From a virus, in the IMG/VR virus record IMGVR_UViG_3300007634_000002, positions 1 to 64,000 of that record: DNA of 64,000 nt; one strand, 5' to 3'. Shown one piece after another: positions 16,423 through 49,657 of this stretch; positions within the stretch are counted from its first letter, which is position 1; each line of letters begins with the position of its first letter. The notes under the pieces are model-generated. The model saw only the letters and a list, made by a program, of their open reading frames with translations. It was not told the origin of the DNA and did no database searches. The position numbers and the translations under genes were made by a program.

Positions 16423-17361
16423 ATGGCCGCTTTGACTCAAGATGAGAGCAAGCTTATTTCTCGCGCGGTGTTCGAGAAGTTGTCTTCTCGCGACCCGATG
16501 CTGGAAAAGGAAGCTATTGACGCTGTCAATGACTTTACCCGCACGAAAATGAGAGAAGATGGTTTCTATCGTCGGATTATGCCGCCGATTCCAATCACCA
16601 ACGACGAACTGGATCGTCAGGTTGACACCGACAAGCCAGTAAAGATCGTTGACAAGGAACCTGATAGCCCAGCAGCTATCTCGATTCCTTTCGCAACTCT
16701 GCCGACCAACCTCTACATCCGTGGTCCTCGTTACCGCGTTATGTTTGACCGTATCGTTACCCCACGTTTTACGAAAGACGTGGATGAACTAAGAACTTGG
16801 ATCATGGACATCCGTCAGGTGTTGTCGGACAACAGTATCAAGGACATGCTGGCTGAAGAAGACAGCAAGTTCCTTCGCGCTGTGAACACCGCCCTCGTAG
16901 GCGCTGGTCTGACTGTTCCCACCTCGGGCACCGTCCAGTACGAAACCATCTCCGGCGGTATCACTCGCGATACCCTTTGGGATTCGCTCAAGATCATGCC
17001 AAACACTCCGAGCAACCTCGAAGTGCACTCGGTCCTTCTGAACAACATTACCATCAAGGAAGTGTGCAAGTTCGGTTGGAACGAAATGGGTGGTCAGATC
17101 AGCGAAGACATCATGAAAAACGGCTGGTCCGCTCAAGAATTCATGGGTGTCCGTTGGGTCGTCACCATCAAGAAGGGTCTGGTTCCAACCAACACCTTCT
17201 ATCACTTCGCCGACCCCAAGTTCATCGGCAAGTCGTACGTTCTCGAAGACACCACCATGTACATCCGTCGCGAAGCGTACATGATTGAGTTCTTCGCTTA
17301 TGAAACCCTCGGCGGATCGATCGGACACACTTCCGGTCTGGCCCGTGTTGACTTTGCCTGA
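16423..17361 (+). CDS. major capsid protein, HK97 fold expected
   Basis: 312 residues with a strong GGAGG site. The N-terminal helix (LTQDESKLISRAVFEKL) is followed by the beta-rich E-loop-like region and a helical spine region with WIMDIRQVLSDNSIKDMLAEEDSKFLRAVN, as in capsid proteins of large myoviruses. Position after protease and scaffold, and the most extreme codon bias in the window (ACC, ATC, AAG, CTG preferred), fit the most abundant virion protein. A hairpin terminator lies just after the stop. There is no long N-terminal delta domain, which agrees with a separate scaffold gene. Confidence 0.85.
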   Translation: MAALTQDESKLISRAVFEKLSSRDPMLEKEAIDAVNDFTRTKMREDGFYRRIMPPIPITNDELDRQVDTDKPVKIVDKEPDSPAAISIPFATLPTNLYIRGPRYRVMFDRIVTPRFTKDVDELRTWIMDIRQVLSDNSIKDMLAEEDSKFLRAVNTALVGAGLTVPTSGTVQYETISGGITRDTLWDSLKIMPNTPSNLEVHSVLLNNITIKEVCKFGWNEMGGQISEDIMKNGWSAQEFMGVRWVVTIKKGLVPTNTFYHFADPKFIGKSYVLEDTTMYIRREAYMIEFFAYETLGGSIGHTSGLARVDFA

Positions 17362-19053: not shown

Positions 19054-19557
19054 ATGTCAGGTTTAAGAATAGATCAACTCAGTTCTCGGGTACCTGTCAA
19101 AACAGACATGACGGCAACTACAGCGGCTGGCGGTCCTGCGGGATTCAGCACCATGACGACTGTGGTTGAAGCTGGTTGTTCGGGTGCCACGATATTGACG
19201 ATTGGAAGTACTGGTGCCGGAGGGTCGTTTGCGCATCCGTCCAGCACAGTTAATATAAGTACTAATACAAACAATTTGGCGTTTAGCAGTTCAGCGTTTC
19301 AACGGCTGAATTGTACGAAAGCCAGTCAACTTACAGGAATAGCTCCACCCAACGGATCAGCGCATGCGGACGGCAGAATGATTCGTATTGTCAACGTCGG
19401 AACAGACACAGTTACAATTAAACACATGTCTACGTCGTCTGATGCTGCCAACAGGATTGACACTACTGGCACAGATAAAACGTTAACGTCCAAACATGCG
19501 CTTGAAGTAATTTATGATTCTACTGCCGGAAATTGGCTTGCATGGGAGTTAACTTAA
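19054..19557 (+). CDS. beta-rich virion/fibre protein
   Basis: 167 residues from ATG 19054. It begins MSGLRIDQLSSR, a short helical lead, followed by many Thr/Ser/Gly-rich strands (VNISTNTNNLAF, MIRIVNVGTDTVTIKH) and ends EVIYDSTAGNWLAWELT, a layout that resembles receptor-facing domains of phage fibres. It overlaps the next start by one base (TAATG). No enzymatic motif is seen. Fibre or spike component is the best call. Confidence 0.5.
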   Translation: MSGLRIDQLSSRVPVKTDMTATTAAGGPAGFSTMTTVVEAGCSGATILTIGSTGAGGSFAHPSSTVNISTNTNNLAFSSSAFQRLNCTKASQLTGIAPPNGSAHADGRMIRIVNVGTDTVTIKHMSTSSDAANRIDTTGTDKTLTSKHALEVIYDSTAGNWLAWELT

Positions 19558-19976
19558 TGGCAAGTCTTGTGTACAACTCGTGTATTCGTGATGGGTTGGT
19601 AGGAAACATCAACTTCAGCACAGACACGTTCAAGCTGGCTTTGGTGACATCGGCTTACGGTGCGGCCAAGTCTCATTCCAAGCGCAATGATGTCACGAAC
19701 GAAGTTACGGGCGTCGGTTATACGGCAGGCGGCAATGCTTGTGTTGTTACCGTTGCGGCCGTAGACAATGTTAACAACGACATTGAGCTGTCTTTTGTCG
19801 TAACTTCGTGGACGTCGGCTACCATCACCGCAAAAGGTGGGGTAATATACAAGTCCAGAGGTGGCGCATCATCTGCTGACGAACTTGTAGGATATGTCGA
19901 TTTTGGTAATGACATTTCCTCAACAAACGGTACATTTGCGGTTACGGTTACGACACCACTGAAGTTCCAGAACTAA
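19557..19976 (+). CDS. common phage small structural protein
   Basis: 139 residues, starting at the ATG that overlaps the previous stop. It matches a very common phage pattern from memory: DTFKLALVTSAY, KRNDVTNEVTGVGYTAGG, a central strand ending SWTSATITAKGGVIYK, then LVGYVDFG and SSTNGTFAV. The function of this family is not established; it occurs near tail and head-fibre genes and is probably a virion surface beta-sandwich. Neighbouring genes carry similar-sized beta proteins, so this may be a cluster of exchangeable surface modules. Confidence 0.6.
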   Translation: MASLVYNSCIRDGLVGNINFSTDTFKLALVTSAYGAAKSHSKRNDVTNEVTGVGYTAGGNACVVTVAAVDNVNNDIELSFVVTSWTSATITAKGGVIYKSRGGASSADELVGYVDFGNDISSTNGTFAVTVTTPLKFQN

Positions 19977-19988
19977 GGAGTTTGATTC

Positions 19989-20429
19989 ATGGCAACGTTC
20001 AATAAGGTATACGGTTTTGTTGAGCATCTTGCCGAAAAGATGCATAACCTCGGTGCAGATCAACTTGTCGTCGCTTTGAGTAACACGGCGCCATCCGCAG
20101 AAAGTACGCGTCCTGATCTTTTGACGGCTAACTGCATTTTGGCTAACGTCAGTCAGATCTCTTACACCAACTGTTCCTCACGTAACTTGACCACAACTAC
20201 GAGTTCGCAGTCATCAGGAACGTATGCTCTGGTTTTGGCGGACTTGGTTTTGACTGCAACCGGAACTGTAGGGCCTTTCCGTTACGTTTACATTTACAAC
20301 AGTTCTGCGACACTAGCCACCAACCCTCTGATTGGGTACTACGATTACGGTAGTTCCATTACGTTGGCATCGGGCGAAACATTTACAATTGACTTTGATA
20401 ACGTGAGTGGTGTTTTGACGTTGGCGTAA
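19989..20429 (+). CDS. small virion protein, paralogue of C-terminus of next gene
   Basis: 146 residues. The whole protein matches the C-terminal ~145 residues of the product of 20503-21561: FVEHLAEKMHNLGADQL, NTAPSAES, ISYTNCSSRN, TATGTVGPFRYV, IGYYDYGSSITLASG all recur with small changes. This domain is common in phages next to fibre genes. It is followed by a strong terminator. Its function is unknown; a surface beta-sandwich is likely. Confidence 0.6.
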   Translation: MATFNKVYGFVEHLAEKMHNLGADQLVVALSNTAPSAESTRPDLLTANCILANVSQISYTNCSSRNLTTTTSSQSSGTYALVLADLVLTATGTVGPFRYVYIYNSSATLATNPLIGYYDYGSSITLASGETFTIDFDNVSGVLTLA

Positions 20430-20453
20430 CAGTATAAATGTCGCAAATTTAGT

Positions 20454-20487
20454 AAGTTCTGAACGTGCAATGCGTTCAGAACTTTTT
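20454..20487 (+). terminator. rho-independent terminator
   Basis: A perfect 12-bp stem AAGTTCTGAACG / CGTTCAGAACTT closes a 7-base loop and is followed by a T-run. It lies between the two paralogous genes at 19989 and 20503. Confidence 0.85.
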
Positions 20488-20502
20488 ACTTAGGAATTTG
20501 CA

Positions 20503-21561
20503 ATGGCGCAAACGCATCATTACTTGTTTGACACCTCAGGCACGTACAACGATGCTACGGGCACGACAAATTTTACGAATGTCTACGGCTCAATCGGTAG
20601 TAGTGGGAAAGTAAACCAGTGCTACCAAACCGCATTTTACAACCTGATGGACGGGGTAAACGCATACACGTCCACCAACCTCCTTCCCACGTCAGGCGCA
20701 TTCACGATTGCGTATTGGTGGAAGGCGTCTATTGATGGTCCGGCGATACGGATTTTTTCAATGACCGGGTTTTACATCGGCTACTCGACACCGACAGGGC
20801 TCTTTATCGAGTCGCTAGCGTTTTCGCCATATTTCTACATGTCTGTCAGCGGTGCGCAGAGCGCCAGCGTATGGACGCACACGGTGATTCGCTGGGATGG
20901 CACCAACTGGTCCATTTACATCAACGGCTCGTCTGCCACCATTAGCGGATCAACAACTACTGGGCCGGGTGCGGGGGGCTACGACTCCTCGTCTCCGTTT
21001 CAAATCTTTAACCAGTCGTATAGCAACACCCTCATCGACGATCTCCGTATTTACGACACGGCAATTGATGCGACTGAAATAGCACGCATCTACAACTCAG
21101 GTACGGGCACTCAATCTGACAGTGGCGGTGGCGGAGGTAGCCCTTCCCCAGTCACGTCAGCTTTCTACAAATTCCAACCATTTGTAGAAGCGGCAATGGA
21201 AAAAGTTCACAATTTGGGATCGGATCAGTTAAAGGTAGCTCTTACCAATACGGCACCTTCTGCGGCTAATGCTGTGTTGACGGACATCAGCGAAATCTCC
21301 TACACCAACTGTTCGACACGCAACATTACGACGTCTACAAGCGCGCAAACTTCGGGAACATACAAATTAGTGTGCGCTGACTTGGTTCTTACCGCTAGTG
21401 GAACAGTTGGGCCTTTTAGATACGTCGTGTTGTATAATGACACGGCGGCCAGTAAAAATTTAATTGCTTATTACGATTATGCCAGCAGCGTTACTTTGGC
21501 AAACGGTGACACGTTTACAATTGATTTTGACGGCTCTGGTGGTGTTTTGACTGTAACTTAG
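20503..21561 (+). CDS. LamG-type lectin domain fused to small virion domain
   Basis: 352 residues in three parts. Residues 1-205 form a concanavalin A-like (Laminin G-type) domain: FTIAYWWK, HTVIRWDGTNWSIYINGS and the classic ending IDDLRIYDTAIDATEIARIYNSG. Residues ~208-220 are a Gly/Ser/Pro linker (SDSGGGGGSPSP). The rest is a paralogue of the previous gene. LamG-type domains bind sugars or proteins, so this is a good receptor-binding or surface-adhesion protein. The LamG part is noticeably richer in G+C (35 of 60 bases in 20641-20700) than the C-terminal part (21 of 60 in 21421-21480), which suggests it was acquired separately. Confidence 0.7.
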   Translation: MAQTHHYLFDTSGTYNDATGTTNFTNVYGSIGSSGKVNQCYQTAFYNLMDGVNAYTSTNLLPTSGAFTIAYWWKASIDGPAIRIFSMTGFYIGYSTPTGLFIESLAFSPYFYMSVSGAQSASVWTHTVIRWDGTNWSIYINGSSATISGSTTTGPGAGGYDSSSPFQIFNQSYSNTLIDDLRIYDTAIDATEIARIYNSGTGTQSDSGGGGGSPSPVTSAFYKFQPFVEAAMEKVHNLGSDQLKVALTNTAPSAANAVLTDISEISYTNCSTRNITTSTSAQTSGTYKLVCADLVLTASGTVGPFRYVVLYNDTAASKNLIAYYDYASSVTLANGDTFTIDFDGSGGVLTVT

Positions 21562-22026: not shown

Positions 22027-25000
22027 ATGGCACATCTTGCATTAGCGCATTCAGGTAGTCCGTATATAGGTGTTTGCGGTTGGCATCCATCCACCGGAAC
22101 AGGCACGTTTTTTTCTAACCCTGCGTCACTTCCAGCTAGCGCAGGGAACGGCATTGCGTGGTTTGGCGGTACAAAGCCTACGGCCATTGCTGTTGCGCAC
22201 AGTACTAGCCCGCGTCTTAGTGCGTATCCGTGGTCTGTAAACGGTTTTGGTACAAGATACACCGACCCTGCTGTATTACCCGCTGCTACGGGTAACGACG
22301 TTACTTTTTCGACAACTGATATTTTTGTAGCTACCGGCAGTTCGGCGTATTTGTACGCATATCCTTTTACGGCGGCATCCGGGTTTGGTACTAGATATGC
22401 AAATCCTTTAACAATACCTAACGCCACGGGTAATGATGTTGCTCTTACGCCCGATAACGCAACGGTTGGTGTTGCAACAGGCAGCACATCATTTTTTAGT
22501 GTGTATCCGTTTACTACTGGAACTGGTTTCGGTACAAGATACGCCAACCCTGCAACGCTGCCCGCAGGCGCAGGTAATGGCATTGCTTTTACAGCTACTG
22601 CCGTAGCTGTTGCACAAACGACAAGTCCGTTTGTTTCAGTTTATCCGTTTAATACTGTATCGGGAATTGGTACACGGTATGCCAATCCTAGTCCGGTATT
22701 GCCCGGTGCAAGCGTACACGTTGACTTTTCGCCGGCAGGCGACGCGATTGCCCTTGCTTCGGCGACAACGCCGTATGTAACTGCTTATGCGTGGACAGCT
22801 GGTTCAGGGTTTGGAACAAAGTATTCTAACCCCACAACATTGTTGCTTACTGGCGCATTCTCCGCGCGGTTTACGGCGGATACTTTAACGGTAAGTTCAA
22901 GCTCAGGCGGTCCAAACGTTCTTGTGTATCCGTGGTCATCGGTTTCAGGATTTGGTACGCCACCGTCATCGGCTACCGCTTCAAATTTTGGCACAGGCGG
23001 TACAATTAATGATGCGGTTCTGGCCACAGGTTACTATTACATGCCCGCAACCGTTGCGGCATTTACACTGCCGCCGGCGCAGACTTCGTTTGTACCGCCA
23101 ATTGCTTACAGTATGCCGTGCACAACGGCGGCATTTACTCAGACCGGAATTGCAGCTTCGTTGTTGTATGCAAAATCTCCCGCCGTAGTCGCTACGGCGC
23201 AAGGGTTAACACCGTACGTAGAAGTTTTTGACTGGGCTGACACAAATACCTTAGCAACAAAATATACCAATCCAAGCACGTTACCTACCGGCGCTGGTAG
23301 TGGCGTTGCTATGAAATCCGATGTCATAGCTGTAGCCCATAGTAATACGCCATTCGTATCTGCGTACGCGTGGACGTATCGTACGGGTTTTGGTGCGCGG
23401 TTTACAAACCCAGTCACGGTTCCGGCAACAACTGGGCGCGGCGTTAGTTTCACACCAGACGGTTCCGCTATAGCGGTTTCGTCAAGCACAACACCGTTTA
23501 TAGCTGCTTATCCTTGGTCTGTAAGTGGCTTTGGCACAAAATACACTAATCCTGTAACGTTGCCTACCGGAATATCGGCACAAGTTGTTTTTAGTCCGAC
23601 CGGCGCTGCGATTGCCGTGGCGCATAATACTTCGCCTTTTGTGTCGGCATATCCGTGGTCAGTTAGTGGTTTTGGCACAAAATACGCTAATCCGTTAACA
23701 TTGCCGCCATCTAACTCAGGGGGAGCAGCATTTAATCCTGATGGAACTACTCTTGTAGTTGCATGTGGTTCTTCCGGAACAAGAGCTTATCCATTTTCAG
23801 CTGCCAGCGGTTTTGGTACGGCATACACAGATCCGGTGTCTTCCCCATCGGCAAATGCGCCTTTCTTTTTAAGCACAGGTGATCGGTTATTTTATGCGGG
23901 AACGGCATCGCCATACGTATCTGGATACATATGGAATAACAGTTCCGGTTTTGGCATTAAATACAGTAATCCTAGTTCTTTACCTGCCGGAGCAGGTCAA
24001 TCGCTGGCCGCACTTAATACGTTTAACGATTTAAGTTTGCTTGTTGGGCACAGCACTACACCATTCATTTCTATTTATTCGTTATTAGACGCGGGTCGCA
24101 GTTCGTTTGGTACTAAAACCGCTACATACTTGACACTGCCCACCTCCGCTGTTAGTAGCATTGCTACTGTGCAGTCCAAGGCGTACCGGCTTGTTGCAGA
24201 CAGCAGCAGTTTTACGCAAACAGGCACAAATACGGCGTTTAATTATACAGGCGCGTATCAAATCGCTTCGTGTCCAGCAGCTTCACCGTTTTTAAATGCG
24301 TACCAGTGGACGTCCGGCGGGTTTGGTGCAAAATATGCCAATCCGGCTACGTTGCTAGCCGCAAAAGCGTGCGACGTAACTTTTTCTGCGACTGATATTT
24401 TCTTTTTGAATGACAGTTCACCGTGTATTCACGCATACAGTTGGACAGCGGCTTCCGGATCTGGCACAAAATACACTAATCCAGTAACTGGGCCTTTTGG
24501 CGTAAATACGGGAACTACTACCGGCGGTATTGCGGTAACCCGGCAAAACGATGCTGTCATTGTCGGCGGAAACGTTAGTACGGCGCCGTCTATAGGCGCT
24601 TACCCGTGGACAACAGGTACAGGATTCGGTACACGCTTTACAACTCCTGCGTCGGCACCTACATTTTACGTAAATAATGTTAAATTTGCAGAAGACGGTC
24701 AAGCCGTTTTCTTAGCGGAATATAGTACGCCGTATCTTTCCGCATATGCGTGGTCATCTGTTTCTGGCTTTGGCACGCGCTATACAAATTATCCGACACT
24801 GCCGTCAGGGTCACCGCGTGGTTATGGTCTGGCCATACGTCCTAATATTGTCGCATTTGGTTGTCTGGTCACGCCGTATATATTTGCGTATACGTGGTCG
24901 AACACTACAGGATTTGGTACAAAATTTTCTAATCCGACAACATTACCCGCAAACATGCCGCGCCGTCTTGCGTTTTCACTTACAGGTGATGCGCTTATTG

Positions 25001-25280
25001 GAGCGGTGGATAGCGCACCTCGACAGGTAGCGTATCCATGGTCTGACAGCACAGGTTTTGGTACAAAATATGCCGATCCGGTAGATGAAATTTCAGGAAC
25101 AGCCACATCGGTTGCTGCTGGACCAGACGTAGTAGTTTTTGGTTCAGGCACGCAATCACCTTACACGTTAGCCTATCCGTTTACGACTGCGTCCGGTTAT
25201 GGAAGCCGTTATGCAGCACCACCCGATTTTCAAGCATCGGCCGTTAATGCTGTTGCGTTTAGAGTATCAAAATACTTCAT
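22027..25280 (+). repeat. 21 propeller-blade repeats in 3 x 7
   Basis: About 141-bp protein-level repeats. Each carries a hydrophobic strand, Ser/Thr-Pro-Phe/Tyr, Tyr-Pro-Trp, GFGT, Lys/Arg-Tyr, Asn-Pro. DNA copies are diverged, so the array is old, not recently amplified. Confidence 0.75.
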
Positions 25281-27933
25281 GTCCGCCACGCCCGAAGCGT
25301 CGTTTGCATTGACAGGAAATGCTGCCACTTTAACTCAAGCAGTTGCCGGCATAAATTACACCCTCACCACTACAGCCGGCGCTTATTCTGAAACCGGTCA
25401 AACCACCACACTAACTCAAACACTTGCCACGCTAAACAACTACACACTGACAGCCGCAGCAAGCTCATTTGCTTTAACAGGAATAGCCGCAACACCTAAA
25501 GCGGCACGTAAACTCACGGCTACGCTTCAAACCTATGCCTTAACAGGAACAGCAACTGGTTTAACATCAGCACGTAAACTCACGGCTACTCTTCAAACCT
25601 ATGCACTCACAGGAACAACAACTGGTTTAATCCCGGCACGTAAACTCACGGCTACTCTTCAAACCTATGCATTAACAGGCATAGCGGCTACACCTAAAGC
25701 AACACGTACGCTTGCGGCTACGCTTCAAACTTATGCCTTAACAGGAACAGCAACTGGTTTAGCCTTTGGCCATAAACTTGCAGCCGTTGTTCAATCTTAT
25801 TCAATTACAGGAACAACGACTGGACTAACTGCTGCACGTAAACTTACAGCTACTCTTCAGACCTATGCCTTAACAGGAACAGAAATTGGTTTAACATCAG
25901 CACGTAAACTTACTGCTACTTTTCAAACTTATGTCATTTCAACCACCGCTGCTGCAATTACCAGTGCACGCAAAATTTCGGCTACGACTCAAACGTATGC
26001 ACTGACACTTAATCCCGCAACCCTAACGCCAGCGCACACACTCACCGCTTCTATAAGTACTTATGCAATTACCACAAACGATACAAATTTTTCTTTAACT
26101 CGAAAAATTACGGTAGAACCGCAAACTTACTACCACATTGGATCTAACCTTACGGCTTTCTTTGTCGGGCGCGCAATCAGTGGCACCACTCAAACTTGCA
26201 CATACACAACCATAGCCGCAAACACGCTTGTTACTCGAAAACTTACAGCAACAACAAATACCGGAACATTAACAGGAAACGACAGCAATCTTTTACGCGG
26301 TTACACGTTAACTGCAACGGTATCTGCGTTCACAGTCGGGCATCACGATGTTGGGTTTTTAATAACGCGCGCATCTGCATATACGCTTTCAATTACCACA
26401 GATGATCTTACGTTTACAGGTATTTCTGCAAATCTTCGGCGTACGGCGCAGTTACCCACAACAACTGTTACGTTTGCACTAACGGGTATTGATGTTTTTC
26501 TTAGATCTGATCACAACATAACGCCAACGGTTCAGTCTTTTGCGTTGAATGGTATTTCTGCCGGTTTGCGTTTAAATGCACGGCTTACAGCAGAATACCG
26601 CGGTTTTGAGGCGCTTGGAAACAACACAAGTTTAACTGCGGCACGAAAACTTACTGGTGCGGTTCGGACTTACACACTGAGCGGAACGACAACTAATTTT
26701 GTCGGCGCGCACAAATTTACCGGTGCGACACAAACTTACACACTAACGGGCGCATCTGCGGGTTTAACTGTAACTCGTAAACTTACTGCGGCGATTAGAA
26801 CGTACGCACTGACAGGAATAGCCGCAGGTTCAAGTACTACGCGTAAACTTACAGCCGCAGTTCAAACTTACACGCTGACAGGAACAATTACCGGGCTTGC
26901 TTTTGGGTATAAAGTCACGGCTGCGGTTCAAACGTACACACTTACAGGCACATCTGCGGGTTCACGTACTGCACGTAAATTACTTGCTGTTTTACGAACA
27001 TATGCGTTTACAAGTAATGCTGCCAACTTAAGTCACAGCCATTTACTTTCACCTGTAACTCAAGCTTTCACATACACAACACAAGACGCCAATCTACTTT
27101 ACGGCAGAGCATTTATTGCTGAAACGGGCGTGTTCTTTAAAACTGAATACGACGCTCAAGGATACGTCGGTAGAAGACTTTATGGCGCCACGGGGACCTT
27201 AAACTTAACCGGTGTCTCTGTACTATTTACGCACGATCATCCATTACGTGTACAAACCGCAACGTTTAATGAAAATCGTATTGGTGCGTTTCTTCTTGTT
27301 GATCGTTTAGTTTCGGCGGCACCTGCTACCTTTGCGCTGACAGGTTTTGCTTGTGAAATAACCATTAGTGCTGCGGCTGAAGGTCCAAGCAACGAAATCA
27401 CGGTTGAGCCTCTTGATGGTTCTGCTTATGGATCTGTTGGTGTAACACTACCTACTATTACGATCTATGCGGCACAAGGCACAGCAACGGGTACGGCAAA
27501 CGTCAGCGTACCTTTGTTTAATGTTGACGTTGTACCTTTAGATGGGCTTGGGTTTGGTAACGGTTATTTATCTGCCGCCAGTGCCGCCGCTTACACAGAA
27601 TTATTGATCAAACTTGCGGCGACAACCAACACTGTTTTAGACGTTAACATTGCAGACACTAACGTTACGCGGGTACATGCGTCTACAGTCAGAATAGACG
27701 TTGTGCCTCCTACAATTGTTACATCGGCAACTCGGCCTGTTGTTTCAACTAAAAGTCAGACATCCACAAGTATTGCTGTAAAGAATAAAACTCAAGCTGT
27801 CTCGTCTGTAAGAAGTGTTGTTTCCAAAACATCTCTAGTCCAAACAACACAGGCGACACGGGTGGCATCCACGTCATCTACTACGCGCGTGGTTTCTACG
27901 ATACCGTCACAATCAACAGTTACTGGTGTGTAA
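22027..27933 (+). CDS. giant fibre: three predicted 7-bladed propellers plus 22-residue repeat stalk
   Basis: 1968 residues. Residues 1 to ~1080 hold 21 repeats of ~47 residues with the core YPWSxxxGFGTKYxNP, preceded by a strand like IAVAHSTSPF. They fall in three blocks of exactly seven (about 1-330, 385-715, 745-1080), separated by short pieces that look like the downstream repeat (AAFTQTG). Seven blades of this length is the standard beta-propeller count, so I predict three propellers. Residues ~1085-1780 are about 31 copies of a 22-residue repeat with core QTYALTG. The end (~1880-1968) is Ser/Thr/Val-rich. There is no signal peptide. It is likely a virion surface fibre, with propellers for receptor binding and the 22-mer array as a stalk. 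The GGTGCG before the ATG is only a weak ribosome site. Confidence 0.7.
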   Translation: MAHLALAHSGSPYIGVCGWHPSTGTGTFFSNPASLPASAGNGIAWFGGTKPTAIAVAHSTSPRLSAYPWSVNGFGTRYTDPAVLPAATGNDVTFSTTDIFVATGSSAYLYAYPFTAASGFGTRYANPLTIPNATGNDVALTPDNATVGVATGSTSFFSVYPFTTGTGFGTRYANPATLPAGAGNGIAFTATAVAVAQTTSPFVSVYPFNTVSGIGTRYANPSPVLPGASVHVDFSPAGDAIALASATTPYVTAYAWTAGSGFGTKYSNPTTLLLTGAFSARFTADTLTVSSSSGGPNVLVYPWSSVSGFGTPPSSATASNFGTGGTINDAVLATGYYYMPATVAAFTLPPAQTSFVPPIAYSMPCTTAAFTQTGIAASLLYAKSPAVVATAQGLTPYVEVFDWADTNTLATKYTNPSTLPTGAGSGVAMKSDVIAVAHSNTPFVSAYAWTYRTGFGARFTNPVTVPATTGRGVSFTPDGSAIAVSSSTTPFIAAYPWSVSGFGTKYTNPVTLPTGISAQVVFSPTGAAIAVAHNTSPFVSAYPWSVSGFGTKYANPLTLPPSNSGGAAFNPDGTTLVVACGSSGTRAYPFSAASGFGTAYTDPVSSPSANAPFFLSTGDRLFYAGTASPYVSGYIWNNSSGFGIKYSNPSSLPAGAGQSLAALNTFNDLSLLVGHSTTPFISIYSLLDAGRSSFGTKTATYLTLPTSAVSSIATVQSKAYRLVADSSSFTQTGTNTAFNYTGAYQIASCPAASPFLNAYQWTSGGFGAKYANPATLLAAKACDVTFSATDIFFLNDSSPCIHAYSWTAASGSGTKYTNPVTGPFGVNTGTTTGGIAVTRQNDAVIVGGNVSTAPSIGAYPWTTGTGFGTRFTTPASAPTFYVNNVKFAEDGQAVFLAEYSTPYLSAYAWSSVSGFGTRYTNYPTLPSGSPRGYGLAIRPNIVAFGCLVTPYIFAYTWSNTTGFGTKFSNPTTLPANMPRRLAFSLTGDALIGAVDSAPRQVAYPWSDSTGFGTKYADPVDEISGTATSVAAGPDVVVFGSGTQSPYTLAYPFTTASGYGSRYAAPPDFQASAVNAVAFRVSKYFMSATPEASFALTGNAATLTQAVAGINYTLTTTAGAYSETGQTTTLTQTLATLNNYTLTAAASSFALTGIAATPKAARKLTATLQTYALTGTATGLTSARKLTATLQTYALTGTTTGLIPARKLTATLQTYALTGIAATPKATRTLAATLQTYALTGTATGLAFGHKLAAVVQSYSITGTTTGLTAARKLTATLQTYALTGTEIGLTSARKLTATFQTYVISTTAAAITSARKISATTQTYALTLNPATLTPAHTLTASISTYAITTNDTNFSLTRKITVEPQTYYHIGSNLTAFFVGRAISGTTQTCTYTTIAANTLVTRKLTATTNTGTLTGNDSNLLRGYTLTATVSAFTVGHHDVGFLITRASAYTLSITTDDLTFTGISANLRRTAQLPTTTVTFALTGIDVFLRSDHNITPTVQSFALNGISAGLRLNARLTAEYRGFEALGNNTSLTAARKLTGAVRTYTLSGTTTNFVGAHKFTGATQTYTLTGASAGLTVTRKLTAAIRTYALTGIAAGSSTTRKLTAAVQTYTLTGTITGLAFGYKVTAAVQTYTLTGTSAGSRTARKLLAVLRTYAFTSNAANLSHSHLLSPVTQAFTYTTQDANLLYGRAFIAETGVFFKTEYDAQGYVGRRLYGATGTLNLTGVSVLFTHDHPLRVQTATFNENRIGAFLLVDRLVSAAPATFALTGFACEITISAAAEGPSNEITVEPLDGSAYGSVGVTLPTITIYAAQGTATGTANVSVPLFNVDVVPLDGLGFGNGYLSAASAAAYTELLIKLAATTNTVLDVNIADTNVTRVHASTVRIDVVPPTIVTSATRPVVSTKSQTSTSIAVKNKTQAVSSVRSVVSKTSLVQTTQATRVASTSSTTRVVSTIPSQSTVTGV
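25288..27372 (+). repeat. about 31 tandem 66-bp repeats (22-residue LTG repeat)
   Basis: The period is 22 codons. In 25507-25925 copies are nearly identical in DNA (CGTAAACTCACGGCTAC recurs at 25507, 25573 and 25639, exactly 66 bp apart), so recent duplication or recombination is likely there. Later copies are diverged. Confidence 0.8.
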
Positions 27934-27990
27934 TTCCCGTTTAGCGATTATCATGACAAAAGGCAGCAGCCGACAACAAACAGGTGCGTC

Positions 27991-28275
27991 ATGAATTACA
28001 CGATTGGTGATTTAATTCGGTTACTTGTGACGTTTCAAAATACTGCGGGCGCATTTATTGATCCTACGGGTTTAACACTGAGGATTAAATTGCCTGACAG
28101 TACTGTAATTGAATGGACGTATCCCGGGGATATTACTCAAACAGCTACGGGTAAATTTCACTACGATTTTCTTTCCACGGCAGCGGGTACACACAAATAT
28201 CGCTGGGAAGGAACTGGAACGGCGCAAGGTGCCGTAGAGGGTTCGTTCAAAGTCGCAGAGTCGGCTTTTGTGTAA
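27991..28275 (+). CDS. single Ig-like domain, paralogue of N-terminus of next gene
   Basis: 94 residues: MNYTIGDLIRLLVTFQ, DPTGLTLRIKLPD, TATGKFHYDF, GTHKYRWEGTG, then VEGSFKV. The same pattern begins the next protein (GNTVRLLVVF, DPTTVILAIKQPD, GEYQYDF, GTHYYQWKG, EGTFDV). It is a common phage beta-sandwich module near neck and tail genes. It is probably a free-standing duplicate of that domain. Role unknown. Confidence 0.6.
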   Translation: MNYTIGDLIRLLVTFQNTAGAFIDPTGLTLRIKLPDSTVIEWTYPGDITQTATGKFHYDFLSTAAGTHKYRWEGTGTAQGAVEGSFKVAESAFV

Positions 28276-28329: not shown

Positions 28330-29523
28330 ATGAATTACATGGTTGGAAATACAGTCAGGCTGCTTGTGGTTTTCAGGGATGCTCTTGGCATTGCTGTAGA
28401 CCCCACCACAGTGATCTTGGCGATTAAGCAGCCTGATACATCTTTTGAGAACGCCAATTATCCCGGCACCATTACGCGTAAGGCTTTTGGTGAATACCAG
28501 TACGATTTCGTGACAACTCAACCCGGCACGCACTATTATCAGTGGAAGGGTAATGCTGCTACTCAGATTATTTCCGAAGGCACGTTTGACGTCAGCGAAC
28601 TTAGCACCATCATCACGGCAGGTATTCCTGAACTTGATGACTGCAAGATAGCCACCAGATCCAAGGCATTCATCGTGCCCCAAGGTATGACAGCAACACT
28701 CGAACACATATTCAGGGACCGTAAAGGCAACCCTATGAATTTAAGTTCAATTTTTCCTGAGATTGTTGTAATTGCTGATTCGGCAAGTCTTAGTGCTAGT
28801 CCTACAGGCTACGGCAAACTCAGAGCCAAAGAAGCTATGGCAAGTGGTCCGTCTGATACCGTTAATCCAAACTGGGAATTGACTGTAACTTCGCCTGATC
28901 CCGTTAATGGTGTTTTGCAGGCCGTTCTTCCTGCTGCTCTTGTTGAGAACTCGGGCTTGTATCGTATTTCGTGGGGTGTTTTTTCTAGTAAAGACAAACT
29001 TCTTGGCGTCGATGATTCTTTCGTATTGGTAGAAAGGTCTTTGTTTCCGTCAGATAACGAAACCCTTTTTGCGGATTTTGGCCCTCCCACCATCAAAGAA
29101 ATTAGACAACAGATCATGGATTCGTCTGCCAGTGAAAACATCCTTCTAGATGACGTAGAGTTTTCCGACGATCAAATTCTGCACGCCATGACTAAGCCTG
29201 TAGAAGACTGGAATTTAATGTCTCCCCCTATCAGTTCTGCCTATCACACGACACGCAGTTTTCCTTACCGTGAACCTTGGCTCAGAGCTATTGCAGGGCA
29301 TTTACACGTAATGTCTGCCAACCATTATCGCCGAAATCGATTAGCGCATCAGGCGGGTGGTGTTGCTATTGACGATAAAAACAAAGAACGCGAATACATG
29401 GCAGAAGGTCAACGTTTATTGCAAGAATATGCTGTATGGTGTCAGACCAAGAAAATTGAAATTAACACTAAACTAATTTATGGAATTCAGGAATCTTCGT
29501 ACACCATTCGATACGGTTGGTAA
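28330..29523 (+). CDS. neck or head-completion protein with N-terminal Ig-like domain
   Basis: 397 residues. Residues 1-95 are the beta-sandwich shared with 27991-28275. Residues ~95-245 are a second beta-rich domain. From ~250 the protein is helical (IKEIRQQIMDSS, DQILHAMTKPVEDW, then a long charged helix around KNKEREYMAEGQRLLQEY), a pattern like phage head-tail connector or completion proteins, which have helical bundles. The position, after fibre genes and before the zinc-binding protein and sheath, fits the neck. AAGGGAG precedes the ATG. Confidence 0.5.
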   Translation: MNYMVGNTVRLLVVFRDALGIAVDPTTVILAIKQPDTSFENANYPGTITRKAFGEYQYDFVTTQPGTHYYQWKGNAATQIISEGTFDVSELSTIITAGIPELDDCKIATRSKAFIVPQGMTATLEHIFRDRKGNPMNLSSIFPEIVVIADSASLSASPTGYGKLRAKEAMASGPSDTVNPNWELTVTSPDPVNGVLQAVLPAALVENSGLYRISWGVFSSKDKLLGVDDSFVLVERSLFPSDNETLFADFGPPTIKEIRQQIMDSSASENILLDDVEFSDDQILHAMTKPVEDWNLMSPPISSAYHTTRSFPYREPWLRAIAGHLHVMSANHYRRNRLAHQAGGVAIDDKNKEREYMAEGQRLLQEYAVWCQTKKIEINTKLIYGIQESSYTIRYGW

Positions 29524-31328: not shown

Positions 31329-31353
31329 GAATACAGGCTTGGAGGTACAGAAA

Positions 31354-34188
31354 ATGGCTACGTACGTTCTTCCGCAAGTTCAGGTTTTTCAAGATTTTCA
31401 AGCAGCTGTGGTTGCCAATGGTAATCCATTGAACGCCCATATCTCCGGCCCGCACGCATATCTATTGCGTTATGCGGAAGAAAGTGAACGGTCTAAGGGC
31501 CTTCTGGGCTACTACGATACCGTTCTTGACAACAATTATGCGTGGCCTACTCTCCCTGCTGGCGCCATAGTAGACGAAGGTTACGTTAAGGTCTACATCA
31601 AAGACGCTCTTCTTAAATATTACGAAGACGGATTGTCGTCTGGTTCAGTCATTACCAAAGTTGACGGTTTTAGCAACCGCATCATCTCTGACACCAAGTC
31701 GTTCGCCAGCAACGGCACGGCCTACCCACGTTCAGCCGATTTCTACGATCGCGACGTTAAAACCGGCGACGTAGTTAAAGTTCGTGGTATCAGCGGCGGT
31801 CAGTCCGTGACATTGTGGACCTACGTCAAGAAATTAGTTCCTAACGTTGTTGCTTCTTCTGTCGGCACTGTAGAAGTTGACGCAAGCAACGCACCGTGGC
31901 AGAGTGATGCCGCATCTATCGTTAAACTTTCTGGCCCTGACAATTGCGTATACCCCGTTGTCGCTGCTCACGACTACGAAGGTCGCGCCAGCGGTGATGT
32001 CAACGAAACATATGACATCCTTGTAACCGGCGGATCTGTTAACGGAGACTTGACCACCGCTAAATTGCGCGTGATCTCAGGCTCTGGCCGTGACGACGTA
32101 GCCGAAGTTACGCCCGCAGCAGTCGGTCAAAGCACCGCAATCGGTACACGCGGATTTCGCGTTGAATTTTACAATTCGGCGGCTGGCGGATGCTCAGCGT
32201 CGGCTACGGCTGACGCCGTATCTGCGGATGATTTAATCATCGGTCAGCGTTGGCGTGCAAGTGTTTCTGACTTCATTGCCGCTGTTAGTGTCACAGCTGG
32301 CGGTACTTATGCCGCAAGTAAAGACACGACTTACATTATTACGGTGACCCGTGGCGGTAAGGCTATCGATACACTGCCCCCACAAATCTCCGTCACCACA
32401 AACGACGGCAGCGATGTCTCAGGGCCTACGACAGTGCTTGTAAACTGGGTGAGCAACACCACTGTTAATATTGGTACCAAAGGCGTAACCCTGACTTTCG
32501 GTCAATCTCGCGGCCTTGTTAAGGGCGACCGTTATTACATTTCGTGCACAGGTGAATCTGCGGGTGCCTATAAAACCATCGAACTTGGTCACAGTCTTGA
32601 CTCAGGTATTGCTGCTGGTGATCCCGTCGAAGTCACTTTGTACATTCGCAAACCGGTGTTGAACGTCACGAAGAACCGCATTGGATTCGCACCTCTGATT
32701 AACTGGGAAACCAGCGAAACAGAACTCAGTGTGTACTCTGGCATGGTTGCTTACGATTCAACTTGGACCGATTCCGGTGTTGAATTGCCTTTGGATGTTG
32801 TTTCCGAAGCATCTAAGGATTACGGCGCTGTGTATGTAGAATACCGCGCGTGGGTGCAAACTCTTACTAACGAAGTGAATTTTATTAACAACGTTGGTGA
32901 AATTGATGATGCGATTTCTGGACCACTTGACCCAGACAATCCACTTAAGTGGGGGGTGTTCAAGGCGCTTGAAAACAGCAATGGTACCGCTGTAGGGTAT
33001 ACGGCTGTTAGTAATCCAGACGATGCTACAACGTGGGCCGATGTGCTGGAAGCATTGCTTGGTCGCGACGATGTTTACAACCTTGTGCCGCTGACCCGCA
33101 ACCGTACGGTATTGGATCTTTACGCTGCACACGTAACGGCTTTGTCGTCGCCTGAGCGCGGACTGTGGCGCGTACTGTGGGTAAACCTCGCAGGTATTCC
33201 AGAGATTCCTGTAGTGTCCGCTGGTTCGACCGTAGTCAACCACATTGCAGCCACTACTTCTGACGGCGAAGAATGCTTGGCTACGATTGTTGACGATCCT
33301 GACACTTCAGGTTCTCAATTCACTATCGTCAGCAACACTAACGCTAATGGTAATTTTGTCACCAACGATGTGCGTGTAGGTGACATTGTACGCGCCGTTT
33401 ACGTAGGCGATGGTTTTGGTGGCGTCACTTACTCAGAATACACAATTGCTGAAGTTGTGTCAGAAGATCAGTTGCGACTTGTTTCGGGGCCTGCTGCTCC
33501 AGTTAATTCCGCGGCTAAGATTGAAATCTGGCGTTCACTCAGTGCAACAGCTGAAGCGGCTGAAATTGCGTTGGATGCTGGTAGCTGGGGCTCTCGTCGC
33601 ATTCGCGCAGTATGGCCTGACACGATCGAATCCAGCGGCACTGTCATGGAAGGTTATTTCCTTGCAGCGTCTTTGGCTGGTTTGTCTGCCGGCTTGCTTC
33701 CACAGCAACCAATGACTCGCGTTGAAATCGTTGGTTACTCTCGGGCTGCGCGCACCACGGTAAAGTTCAACCGTGCGCAATTGGATACGTTGGCAGCTTC
33801 CGGCGTATTCATTGTGACGCAGAACGGTAACAACGGCCAGATTTTTGCACGGCACGCACTCACGACCGGTGCATATACCGACATCAATCAGCGTGAAGAA
33901 TCGGTTACACGTAATGTGGACTATGTCAGTTACGCTGTACGCGATGTGCTTGATCCATTCATCGGCATCTACAATATCAACCAAAACATCATCAACCGTG
34001 TATCTTTGGCGCTGCGTGAATCGCTGGATACATTTACTGTAAATACCACAACTACGGGTCCTGTGCTGATTGCGTACGCGGATCTTGCCGTTGTACAAGA
34101 CAGTTTGCTTAAGGACAAGTTGAACGTCACGGTCAATATTTCGGTTCCGTATGCCCTCAACAACATTGCCGTACGTCTGATCGTTTGA
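31354..34188 (+). CDS. contractile tail sheath protein
   Basis: 944 residues from ATG 31354, with GGAGG at the proper distance. The C-terminal ~250 residues carry the sheath signature: RIRAVWPDTIE, then LAASLAGLSAGLLPQQPMTR, VVNHIAATTS earlier, and an ending with repeated short strands and helices (INRVSLALRESLDTFTV, LKDKLNVTVNISVPYALNNI). The N-terminus starts with a short arm (VLPQVQVFQDF) of the sort that links neighbouring subunits. Its length, larger than T4 gp18, indicates extra surface domains inserted in the middle. The next gene is the tube protein. This fixes the virus as a myovirus. Confidence 0.88.
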   Translation: MATYVLPQVQVFQDFQAAVVANGNPLNAHISGPHAYLLRYAEESERSKGLLGYYDTVLDNNYAWPTLPAGAIVDEGYVKVYIKDALLKYYEDGLSSGSVITKVDGFSNRIISDTKSFASNGTAYPRSADFYDRDVKTGDVVKVRGISGGQSVTLWTYVKKLVPNVVASSVGTVEVDASNAPWQSDAASIVKLSGPDNCVYPVVAAHDYEGRASGDVNETYDILVTGGSVNGDLTTAKLRVISGSGRDDVAEVTPAAVGQSTAIGTRGFRVEFYNSAAGGCSASATADAVSADDLIIGQRWRASVSDFIAAVSVTAGGTYAASKDTTYIITVTRGGKAIDTLPPQISVTTNDGSDVSGPTTVLVNWVSNTTVNIGTKGVTLTFGQSRGLVKGDRYYISCTGESAGAYKTIELGHSLDSGIAAGDPVEVTLYIRKPVLNVTKNRIGFAPLINWETSETELSVYSGMVAYDSTWTDSGVELPLDVVSEASKDYGAVYVEYRAWVQTLTNEVNFINNVGEIDDAISGPLDPDNPLKWGVFKALENSNGTAVGYTAVSNPDDATTWADVLEALLGRDDVYNLVPLTRNRTVLDLYAAHVTALSSPERGLWRVLWVNLAGIPEIPVVSAGSTVVNHIAATTSDGEECLATIVDDPDTSGSQFTIVSNTNANGNFVTNDVRVGDIVRAVYVGDGFGGVTYSEYTIAEVVSEDQLRLVSGPAAPVNSAAKIEIWRSLSATAEAAEIALDAGSWGSRRIRAVWPDTIESSGTVMEGYFLAASLAGLSAGLLPQQPMTRVEIVGYSRAARTTVKFNRAQLDTLAASGVFIVTQNGNNGQIFARHALTTGAYTDINQREESVTRNVDYVSYAVRDVLDPFIGIYNINQNIINRVSLALRESLDTFTVNTTTTGPVLIAYADLAVVQDSLLKDKLNVTVNISVPYALNNIAVRLIV

Positions 34189-48007: not shown

Positions 48008-49657
48008 ATGGCAGTTACCCCACAAGCGCTTGATGCATTGTCTGCCGAATTGGTTGCGGCGTCTATCGACGAAGTTAGCCAACGAATAGCAGAAGATAAT
48101 CCTACGCTTGATGTTAGTCGTGGCGTCTTTTACGAATTACTTGTCTACTATCACGCACTGTTGGCGACTCGTCTCGATACACTCATTAATGACTATCGGC
48201 GAGCACGTAGTTTATTGGCACTGGAGCAAGATCCTGATCTGGCCGACACTGATTTGGTTGACGACGTATTATCCAATTTTCGGCTGGAACGAAAAGCCGG
48301 TACCGCAGCTACAGGCAGTGTTGCTATTATCCTGAGCAACAACATCACAGTGACGCTCGGGCGCAATACATTTTTTCAAGCTCAAGGTTTACGGTACCGC
48401 ACCACGCAAGTTTATTCTGCTAAAGCTGAAGCCGCACAAGTTAATACTGCAACGGATCGGTTGATTACGCCAACAGCCGATGGGCGGTATATGTTTACGT
48501 TGGAAGTTGAAGCACTTGCCACAGGCGCCGAATACAACATTGAAAAAAACACACTGGTTGTTCCGGTCAATCCTCCGCCCGCCTATGTAACTTCTTACGC
48601 AATCACGGATTTTTCGTCAGGTACAACTGCTGAAACAAACACAGCTGTTTTAAAACGATTGCAAGAAGGTATTGCGGCTAAAACATTGTCCAACCGCGTA
48701 ACTATGGCAGCTTTTTTACGAAACATTGATGCGTATAGCCGAATTGTTGGTACGTCAATTATTGGCTGCGGTGACGCCGAAATGTTTAGGGACAAACATT
48801 CTATTTTCCCTGTTGCATTAGGTGGGCGCGCGGATTGGTATGTTCGTAGCGAGTATTTGCCTGTTACAGTGCAAAAAACAATAACCGCTGTTCGTTTAAG
48901 TGAAAATACAATTGCAGGTCAACCTATTTGGCAATTTTCTATTTCCCGAGACACAGCACCCGGATTTTACGAGGTGCGCGCAATACGGCCTAAGAATGCG
49001 GCTGTAGCTTTGGGTAAATTGTTGTTGGTATCCGACACACGTGGATACGATCTTGGCACAGACGATTTTGTGCCTGACATTATTTCTGCAACCGAAGCTG
49101 CGTATTCTCGGTATCAAACAGCCGTTATTAAATTTGCCGACACGACTCAAGACTCTGCGACATACAGCGCAGGGGCTACGTTGGAATACGATGCCGACAT
49201 TCAATACATGCCGTTAATTATGGAAGTACAAAACACAGTTAATTCCCGAGATATTAGGCATCACGGGGCTGACTGTTTGATTAAAGCTCCTGTGCCGTGT
49301 TTCGTACAAATAAGTTTCACGGTTTACAAGCAATCCAACGAAACAGCACCCGATGTAGCTGCCATCCAGTTAGCCGTTTCAAGCGCAATTAATGCCGTAG
49401 GTTTTGTTGGGCGCGTGTACGCTTCCAAAATTCAAGACGTTGTACACGGTTTCTTGCCTACGAACAGCAGCGTCGGCGCAATTGATATTTTTGGACGCAT
49501 CCGCTACCCCGACGGATCCAATAAGTACTTGCGTAATTCAGAGTTTATTCAAATTCCCGATGCTCCAGAAAGTTTAGTAACATACCGCACAACACAATTT
49601 TTCTGTCGGGCGGAAGACGTATTTGTCACAATTGAAACGGCGATTCCTGAAGGTTAA
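48008..49657 (+). CDS. baseplate J-like wedge protein (gp6-like)
   Basis: 549 residues. It opens with a helical region, followed by FRLERKAGTAATGSVAIILS and a beta domain (VTLGRNTFFQAQGLRYRTT), then YNIEKNTLVV. This is the arrangement of the baseplate J / gp47 / T4 gp6 family (helical N-terminus, then a beta domain with a conserved Gly pattern). Next to the gp25-like gene. It forms the wedge ring that attaches fibres and the sheath. Start has GGAGTGA upstream. Confidence 0.78.
   Translation: MAVTPQALDALSAELVAASIDEVSQRIAEDNPTLDVSRGVFYELLVYYHALLATRLDTLINDYRRARSLLALEQDPDLADTDLVDDVLSNFRLERKAGTAATGSVAIILSNNITVTLGRNTFFQAQGLRYRTTQVYSAKAEAAQVNTATDRLITPTADGRYMFTLEVEALATGAEYNIEKNTLVVPVNPPPAYVTSYAITDFSSGTTAETNTAVLKRLQEGIAAKTLSNRVTMAAFLRNIDAYSRIVGTSIIGCGDAEMFRDKHSIFPVALGGRADWYVRSEYLPVTVQKTITAVRLSENTIAGQPIWQFSISRDTAPGFYEVRAIRPKNAAVALGKLLLVSDTRGYDLGTDDFVPDIISATEAAYSRYQTAVIKFADTTQDSATYSAGATLEYDADIQYMPLIMEVQNTVNSRDIRHHGADCLIKAPVPCFVQISFTVYKQSNETAPDVAAIQLAVSSAINAVGFVGRVYASKIQDVVHGFLPTNSSVGAIDIFGRIRYPDGSNKYLRNSEFIQIPDAPESLVTYRTTQFFCRAEDVFVTIETAIPEG

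What the first reader, a model, noticed from the sequence alone, without database searches (positions are those of the whole stretch)
22027..25280. Giant fibre with three predicted seven-bladed propellers in a row
The first ~1080 residues hold 21 repeats of ~47 residues with a YPW, GFGT and Asn-Pro core. Two breaks divide them into 7 + 7 + 7, which is the classic blade count. The breaks themselves look like single units of the 22-residue repeat found downstream. I know of no described phage fibre built as three serial propellers on a short-repeat stalk, so this could be a new receptor-binding architecture.
Basis: partly seen in the sequence, partly recalled or inferred. Interest (0 to 1): 0.85.

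Follow-up and report, generated by a model that had tools for sequence, protein, structure and literature searches.

The report
Phage adhesin with three seven-bladed propellers
A phage protein starts with three disc-shaped seven-bladed propellers in a row and continues as a long repeat-built stalk; it belongs to a large, mostly unannotated family of propellers often found beside phage tail-fibre genes, and it probably helps the phage recognise its host.

Summary
ORF 22027-27933 (1968 aa) carries 21 blade repeats split 7+7+7 by two breaks, then 22-residue repeats. A profile built only from relatives finds propellers 1 and 2 as whole domains; propeller 3 aligns in two pieces. AlphaFold of propeller 2 (pTM 0.82) matches seven-bladed structures (best Z 35.2). 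In relatives, 83 of 88 distinct complete proteins have 7, 14 or 21 blades: serial propellers are common there, even three, but without this stalk. Relatives often adjoin tail-fibre genes; one is fused to a Mtd-type N-terminus and collagen. A sibling phage is 97-100% identical in 14 of 15 downstream proteins, yet its fibre is about 31% identical and seems to have two propellers. This suggests a swappable host-recognition protein. Unusual are the order, heads first and stalk last, and the place of the gene between head and tail genes; whether the protein sits on head, neck or tail is open. No binding or virion data exist.

The parts
22027..23016 (+). Propeller 1 (residues 1-330), seven blades
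   Evidence: Seven anchors; profile of relatives aligns as one domain, residues 3-324, E 1.2e-92
23017..23175 (+). Linker 1 (residues 331-383), probably 22-residue-type units
   Evidence: 8.7 bits to the 22-mer profile for one unit, 4 of 2000 shuffles as good; the sibling's linker 27.4 bits, 0 of 2000
23176..24192 (+). Propeller 2 (residues 384-722), seven blades
   Evidence: Profile residues 383-716, E 1.7e-100; AlphaFold pTM 0.82; Z 35.2 to the seven-bladed 7bid
24193..24246 (+). Linker 2 (about residues 723-740), one possible 22-residue unit
   Evidence: 4.3 bits, 94 of 2000 shuffles as good: weak, like a control segment
24247..25275 (+). Propeller 3 (residues 741-1083), seven anchors, most divergent
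   Evidence: Seven anchors; profile matches in two pieces, 730-825 (E 6.8e-24) and 831-1084 (E 5.8e-58), out of phase
25276..25512 (+). Neck: first 22-residue-type units (residues 1084-1162)
   Evidence: 28.5 bits to the 22-mer profile, not independent; 86% identical to the sibling phage over 80 residues
25513..27381 (+). Stalk of 22-residue repeats (residues 1163 to about 1785)
   Evidence: Autocorrelation peak at 22 residues: 44%, 28% and 25% identity in the stretches 1085-1300, 1300-1600 and 1600-1800; repeat hits
27382..27933 (+). C-terminal region (residues 1786-1968), Ser/Thr/Val-rich end, and stop codon
   Evidence: Sequence; weak similarity to the sibling's C-terminal region, 44% over 41 residues
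20503..21561 (+). Neighbouring gene: N-terminal concanavalin-type lectin domain, C-terminal phrog_644 domain
   Evidence: Laminin_G_3 E 9.2e-15; phrog_644 E 4.5e-12

Best explanation
The protein is most likely a virion adhesin. Three closed seven-bladed WD40/YVTN-like propellers form the N-terminal recognition heads, joined by short linkers of the 22-residue type. About 30 further 22-residue units (680 residues) make a stalk that carries the heads away from the virion, and the C-terminal end is the probable attachment. Each blade of the family has a few hypervariable positions that fall on one face of the disc, so a propeller would offer a ring of variable residues round its central opening for binding a host surface ligand. 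The gene changes by exchange and by gain or loss of whole propellers and stalk units while the other virion genes compared stay nearly constant. Shown: repeats, blade count, predicted fold of propeller 2, hypervariable positions in the family, divergence from the sibling. Inferred: virion location, ligand binding, polarity, face of the variable positions, stalk fold.
For: Fold: profile E-values; AlphaFold and structure match of propeller 2; profile-to-PDB sequence match to the two-propeller protein 2ymu, E 1.4e-29. Count: 83 of 88 relatives have a multiple of seven; in 33 of 36 with 14 or 21 blades the largest spacing(s) fall after blade 7 (and 14). Function: of 20 neighbouring proteins of relatives scanned, 10 match tail-fibre or fibre-assembly families; of 79 loci, 66 had 1 kb downstream and 61 of these carry a homologue of one tail-fibre-assembly protein there, and 47 of 70 with enough upstream sequence carry a fibre C-terminus (near-duplicates not removed); one relative is Mtd_N + collagen + propeller (L171). 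Exchange: sibling fibre about 31% identical against 97-100% in 14 of 15 downstream proteins; DNA identity resumes at 27941, eight bases after the stop. Variability: blade positions 22, 24, 40 carry 41, 51, 53 nonsynonymous against 3, 1, 4 synonymous codon differences in 75 adjacent blade pairs (80% or more DNA identity) of 24 proteins, while position 9 has 0 against 28 and position 19 has 0 against 24.
Against: The window locus has no tail-fibre-assembly match among the neighbours scanned and lies between a weak major-head-protein match (16423-17361) and the tail sheath gene (31339-34188). Of the 20 neighbours of relatives, 3 match head-and-packaging families, among them a major head protein two genes upstream in L056; 6 match nothing and 1 an unknown-function family. 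In annotated phages the relative follows capsid genes. All 88 viral relatives end within 10 residues of the last blade, so their propellers are C-terminal, the usual receptor-binding end, whereas here they are N-terminal. Propeller 3 aligns in two pieces, and the only model covering it rests on a misregistered alignment. The hypervariable positions could be merely unconstrained: change there is near saturation, so N:S is no proof of positive selection. No ligand, host or virion evidence.
Confidence: 0.72

Rival explanations
1. A narrower alternative within the adhesin reading: it is a head or neck fibre (decoration) rather than a tail fibre. Attached by its C-terminus to the capsid or neck, it holds the phage near its host or in mucus or biofilm by weak binding, and the true receptor-binding proteins lie elsewhere.
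For: Gene order: weak major-head-protein match at 16423-17361, then three phrog_644 proteins, then this gene, then the tail sheath at 31339; baseplate wedge only at 48008. The neighbouring 20503-21561 also has an N-terminal lectin head. In MW202701 and phage ZRG1 the relative follows capsid genes, and in L056 a major-head-protein match lies two genes upstream.
Against: In relatives the same propellers adjoin tail-fibre and fibre-assembly genes and one is fused to a Mtd-type N-terminus with collagen.
Confidence: 0.4
2. The propellers are enzymes (lactonase- or lyase-like) that degrade host surface polymer, rather than binding modules.
For: Structural matches include 6-phosphogluconolactonases at Z about 33; a relative matches Pfam Lactonase at E 1.7e-5, above its cut-off (L100).
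Against: Slightly higher matches are a designed propeller and a surface-layer propeller (7bid Z 35.2, 1l0q Z 34.5); blade sequences are near-uniform repeats whose most variable positions recur at the same places. Catalytic residues were not tested.
Confidence: 0.08
3. The repeats do not form closed discs of seven but an open solenoid or another blade number.
For: Model of 1-1160 has poor stretches (mean pLDDT 69); five of 88 relatives give 6, 12 or 13 blades; propeller 3 aligns in two pieces.
Against: Confident seven-bladed model of propeller 2; counts in relatives; the low stretches coincide with alignment gaps.
Confidence: 0.04

Closest known systems
WRAP / Npun_R6612 C-terminal part of Nostoc punctiforme (PDB 2ymu; designed WRAP-T 7bid-7big)
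   Same: Tandem seven-bladed WD40-type propellers amplified from one blade (14 blades, two rings); best sequence match and best structure match here (passages of PMC6805158, and PMC9218822)
   [quoted passage not shown] two rings; not a phage protein
phiKZ gp131C (PDB 4GBF)
   Same: Seven-bladed propeller of a myophage at the baseplate periphery, speculated to bind receptor or degrade the cell surface (passage of PMC4901313)
   Different: One propeller, described as the C-terminal domain; homology not tested here
Phage phi11 receptor-binding protein Gp45
   Same: Propellers on a stem as probable recognition heads (passages of PMC4901313)
   Different: Five blades, one propeller per chain in a homotrimer, stem N-terminal and helical; homology not tested
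PHROG 19311 (unknown function)
   Same: Two relatives of the window protein match it, E 3.6e-42 and 1.5e-19
   Different: The window protein itself gave no PHROG match
eCIS eBAP3 fibres with beta-propeller lectins and collagen shafts
   Same: Propeller heads on a repeat shaft (passages of PMC12923769)
   Different: Injection systems of bacteria; collagen shaft, not 22-residue repeats; homology not tested

Membership tests
WD40/YVTN-like seven-bladed beta-propeller | About 40-50-residue blades of four antiparallel strands | tested here: met
   Unit about 47 residues; three to four strands per blade in the model of propeller 2
WD40/YVTN-like seven-bladed beta-propeller | Seven blades closing into a ring | tested here: met
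   Propeller 2: model and Z 35.2 to seven-bladed 7bid. Propeller 1 by profile only; propeller 3 by anchors, profile in two pieces, so not settled for it
WD40/YVTN-like seven-bladed beta-propeller | Sequence relation to known members | tested here: met
   Profile of 96 rows finds 2ymu at 1.4e-29; a relative matches Pfam PD40 at 9.6e-13. The window protein alone gave no propeller family
PHROG 19311 | Significant match to the profile | tested here: not met
   No PHROG match at E up to 1 for the whole window protein; relatives do match
Phage tail fibre / receptor-binding protein | N-terminal virion anchor and C-terminal receptor-binding tip | tested here: not met
   Propeller 1 begins at residue 3, so the heads are N-terminal. 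Relatives such as L171 have the usual order
Phage tail fibre / receptor-binding protein | Genes for fibre and fibre assembly next to it | tested here: inconclusive
   Seen in relatives (61 of 66 loci); in the window the neighbours scanned (27991-28275, 28330-29523, 20503-21561) matched no fibre-assembly family
Phage tail fibre / receptor-binding protein | Present on the virion and binds the host receptor | not testable with these tools
   Virus record only; no proteome or binding data

The most novel reading that the evidence does not exclude
This is a modular, evolvable recognition platform: discs of seven near-identical blades with hypervariable positions on one face, one to three discs per chain, diversified by blade duplication and whole-gene exchange. 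In the window's lineage it has been turned round, with heads at the N-terminus of a 22-residue-repeat stalk anchored by its C-terminus to the head or neck, so that siblings with near-identical virions differ mainly in what they bind.
Probability: 0.4. Interest if true: 0.75.

Novelty: new variant of a known kind. Interest (0 to 1): 0.6.

Why it matters
Host-recognition proteins of uncultured phages are hard to spot. If the face with variable positions binds the host, it is a natural repeat scaffold with a readable binding surface, and the pair of sibling phages lets one test whether fibre exchange changes host range.

Tried and rejected
First AlphaFold job (residues 1-1160): the alignment A2 skips one whole blade (582-626), and only 4-5 of its 38 rows reach past about residue 791, so its blade assignment and low stretches are not used; its structure matches only say 'propellers'. 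The second job used single propellers in register.

Codon-level comparison of whole related genes failed: no pairs of equal length with 75% to 99.7% identity. I used adjacent blades within proteins instead, chosen at 80% or more DNA identity; duplication and gene conversion may bias that.

Stalk: no PHROG match and no Pfam match worth keeping for the whole protein (best E 0.063). The 22-residue unit recurs in other phage proteins in which no blades were found (L087-L093, L112, L113), one of them behind two lectin domains (L087). Five of those proteins gave no PHROG match; L087 matched a virion structural family in its lectin part.

The second propeller scan found no further propeller-plus-stalk protein among 74 new loci. 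Exceptions to the seven rule: L032, L041, L046, L057, L073 (13, 13, 6, 12, 13 counted blades); L046 and L041 have one more blade matched only in part. Sibling L111 propeller 1 shows six clear blades and an 89-residue spacing where a degenerate one may lie. The loci include near-duplicates. Genome-contig relatives (13 loci; 14 ORFs with hits): seven ORFs have 7 blade hits, one has 14 and a partial one, six have 2-6 (two of these cut by the contig end). Four of them (L095, L096, L103, L104) have 177-482 residues after the last detected blade, so propellers that are not C-terminal are not unique to the window's lineage; no 22-residue repeats were found in them and they were not pursued.

Literature: searches listed no paper whose title or shown abstract start describes a phage protein with serial seven-bladed propellers (one search showed 10 of 49 papers, one search showed 15 of 33; two searches found none); only the held open library was searched. 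I saw passages of PMC10386132, PMC12923769, PMC4901313, PMC9509320, PMC9218822 and PMC6805158, nothing more of any paper. Terms such as WD40 'top face' are recalled; Mtd_N as a fibre N-terminus is the Pfam name.

Full report
What is there. The ORF at 22027-27933 (+) encodes 1968 residues in a virus record of 107,893 bases. Its first ~1083 residues hold 21 blades, 7+7+7, at the anchors listed in the observation check. The rest is a 22-residue repeat (autocorrelation 44%, 28%, 25% in three stretches) and a Ser/Thr/Val-rich end. A 186,054-base IMG/VR contig holds an identical stretch (21,530 of 21,530 bases for window 17991-39520), so it is the same or a near-identical virus.

Are the blades propellers? 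The window protein alone matched no PHROG, no Pfam propeller and no PDB propeller sequence. Relatives do: Pfam PD40 at 9.6e-13, and WD40-type models below their cut-offs, for the MW202701 protein; a profile of 96 single propellers (three rows from the window) finds PDB 2ymu at 1.4e-29 and the WRAP designs. A profile from 93 relatives, with no window rows, aligns to residues 3-324 (E 1.2e-92) and 383-716 (E 1.7e-100) as whole domains, and to propeller 3 in two pieces, 730-825 and 831-1084, out of phase. AlphaFold of residues 331-745 gave mean pLDDT 85.3, pTM 0.82, 292 of 415 residues at or above 90, and values under 50 only in the linkers. The structural look-up gives 7bid, a seven-bladed design, Z 35.2, 2.0 A over 283 residues, then the YVTN propeller 1l0q Z 34.5 and 6-phosphogluconolactonases Z about 33. 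Among predicted viral proteins the first three matches are a WD40/YVTN-type protein and a 'coagulation factor 5/8 domain' protein of uncultured phages and a protein of Pseudomonas phage POR1.

Blade counts in relatives. Combining both (164 ORFs with blades, 146 closed, 88 after removing similar ones; window and sibling not included), the counts are 7 (47), 14 (32), 21 (4), 13 (3), 12 (1), 6 (1): 83 of 88 are multiples of seven. In 33 of 36 proteins with 14 or 21 blades the widest spacing(s) fall after blade 7 (and 14). All 88 end within 10 residues of the last blade; 20 of 88 have 100 or more residues before the first. From the fragment ends, propellers begin with half a blade and end with a strand that would complete it, the usual closure of a propeller ring (reading of the sequences). 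So tandem propellers are common in viral relatives and three in a row is not unique, but those proteins stop after the last blade. Among 13 genome-contig loci, four have 177-482 residues after the last detected blade.

What the breaks are. In the sibling L111 the linker between its two propeller groups matches the 22-residue unit clearly (27.4 bits, 0 of 2000 shuffles) and reads as two such units; in the window linker 1 is a fair match (8.7 bits, 4 of 2000) and linker 2 is not convincing alone (4.3 bits, 94 of 2000; a control segment of propeller 1 gives 124 of 2000).

Where it lies. Upstream are a weak major-head-protein match at 16423-17361 (E 0.00065), phrog_644 proteins at 19533-19976 and 19989-20429 and a lectin-domain protein with phrog_644 at 20503-21561. 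Downstream come a small protein at 27991-28275 and one at 28330-29523, both with weak matches to unknown-function families, the tail sheath at 31339-34188 and a baseplate wedge at 48008-49657. In relatives, of 20 neighbouring proteins scanned, 10 match tail-fibre or fibre-assembly families, 3 head-and-packaging families (one a major head protein two genes upstream in L056), 1 an unknown-function family and 6 nothing. The assembly protein of L056 (phrog_4912, E 5.7e-19) has a homologue within 1 kb downstream in 61 of 66 loci with enough sequence; a fibre C-terminus lies upstream in 47 of 70 (near-duplicates not removed; 79 loci examined). L171 combines Mtd_N, collagen and propeller. Of 8 relatives scanned whole, 7 of them with long N-terminal parts of at least 240 residues and L137 cut at its start, 3 (L122, L131, L171) match tail families there, 4 match nothing and 1 only phrog_19311. 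L053 has a glycine-rich domain before its propeller. In MW202701 and phage ZRG1 the gene follows capsid genes. So in relatives the propeller sits mostly at the C-terminal end of fibre-like proteins or as a separate protein beside fibre genes, but a place near head genes also occurs.

Sibling phage. IMGVR_UViG_3300042890_003048 (61,700 bases) shares the locus. Of 21 window ORFs that I compared with the sibling stretches held, 16 matched; the other 5 lie outside the stretches held. Fourteen of 15 downstream proteins are 97-100% identical (the last one over 531 of 549 residues), the sheath 85%; the fibre about 32% over its best long alignment (window residues 385-1580) and 29-36% by domain except the neck. 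DNA identity resumes at 27941, eight bases after the fibre stop; inside the gene the neck (25278-25521, 85%) is the only stretch of over 100 bases above 80%. The sibling's fibre has about 1290 residues, two propeller groups (six clear blades plus a wide spacing, and seven) and its own 22-residue stalk. Upstream the sibling contig ends, so the left edge of the divergent region is unknown; 137 bases near the end of the upstream gene are 72% identical.

Which residues vary. Over 720 unique blades the highest entropies are at positions 40, 24 and 22 (3.34, 3.32, 3.15 bits). In 75 adjacent blade pairs of 24 proteins, N and S codon differences are 574 and 574 overall, but 51:1 at position 24, 53:4 at 40, 41:3 at 22 and 42:9 at 41. 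From the strand order in the model, positions 22-24 lie at the end of the d-a loop and start of strand a, and 40-41 in the b-c loop; by the antiparallel meander these are on the same face (inference; no coordinates were at hand). Synonymous change at conserved Gly, Pro, Thr and Ser codons is seen in about a quarter to over a third of pairs, so the hot positions change at about the neutral rate or somewhat more: variability is shown, positive selection is not.

Reading. The best account is a swappable adhesin with propeller heads. The order of parts and the place of the gene leave head, neck or tail open. It works like the propeller heads of phage receptor-binding proteins (phi11, five blades; phiKZ gp131C, seven, function unconfirmed; passages of PMC4901313) and is by fold a WD40/YVTN-type propeller protein; it is not shown to be a tail fibre.

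Noticed in passing
window 31339-34188: The tail sheath gene is the only one of 15 downstream proteins that differs notably from the sibling phage: residues about 101-500 are 50-84% identical per 50-residue block (25-42 of 50), the rest 45-50 of 50, so an exposed insertion may also vary.
   Followed up: partly
window 19533-21561: Three phrog_644 proteins of unknown function in a row, the third with a lectin domain at its N-terminus.
   Followed up: no
L167 4662-8968, also L149, L186, L187, L188: Two or three separate single-propeller genes side by side (442, 372 and 382 codons in L167), a possible split counterpart of the fused triple.
   Followed up: no
L087 6651-8450: Two lectin domains followed by the same kind of 22-residue repeat, again heads first and stalk last.
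   Followed up: partly
L109 4277-12748: A Xanthomonas phage XacN1 gene of 8.5 kb annotated as a phosphodiesterase contains a stretch related to these propellers at about 26% identity.
   Followed up: no
window 27991-28275 and 28330-29523: The small protein just after the fibre resembles the start of the next one (both begin MNY; the sibling's copy of the small gene aligns to the second at 36% over 149 residues).
   Followed up: no
L095, L096, L103, L104: Relatives in bacterial and archaeal metagenome-assembled genomes with 177-482 residues after the last detected blade, the opposite order to the viral relatives.
   Followed up: no
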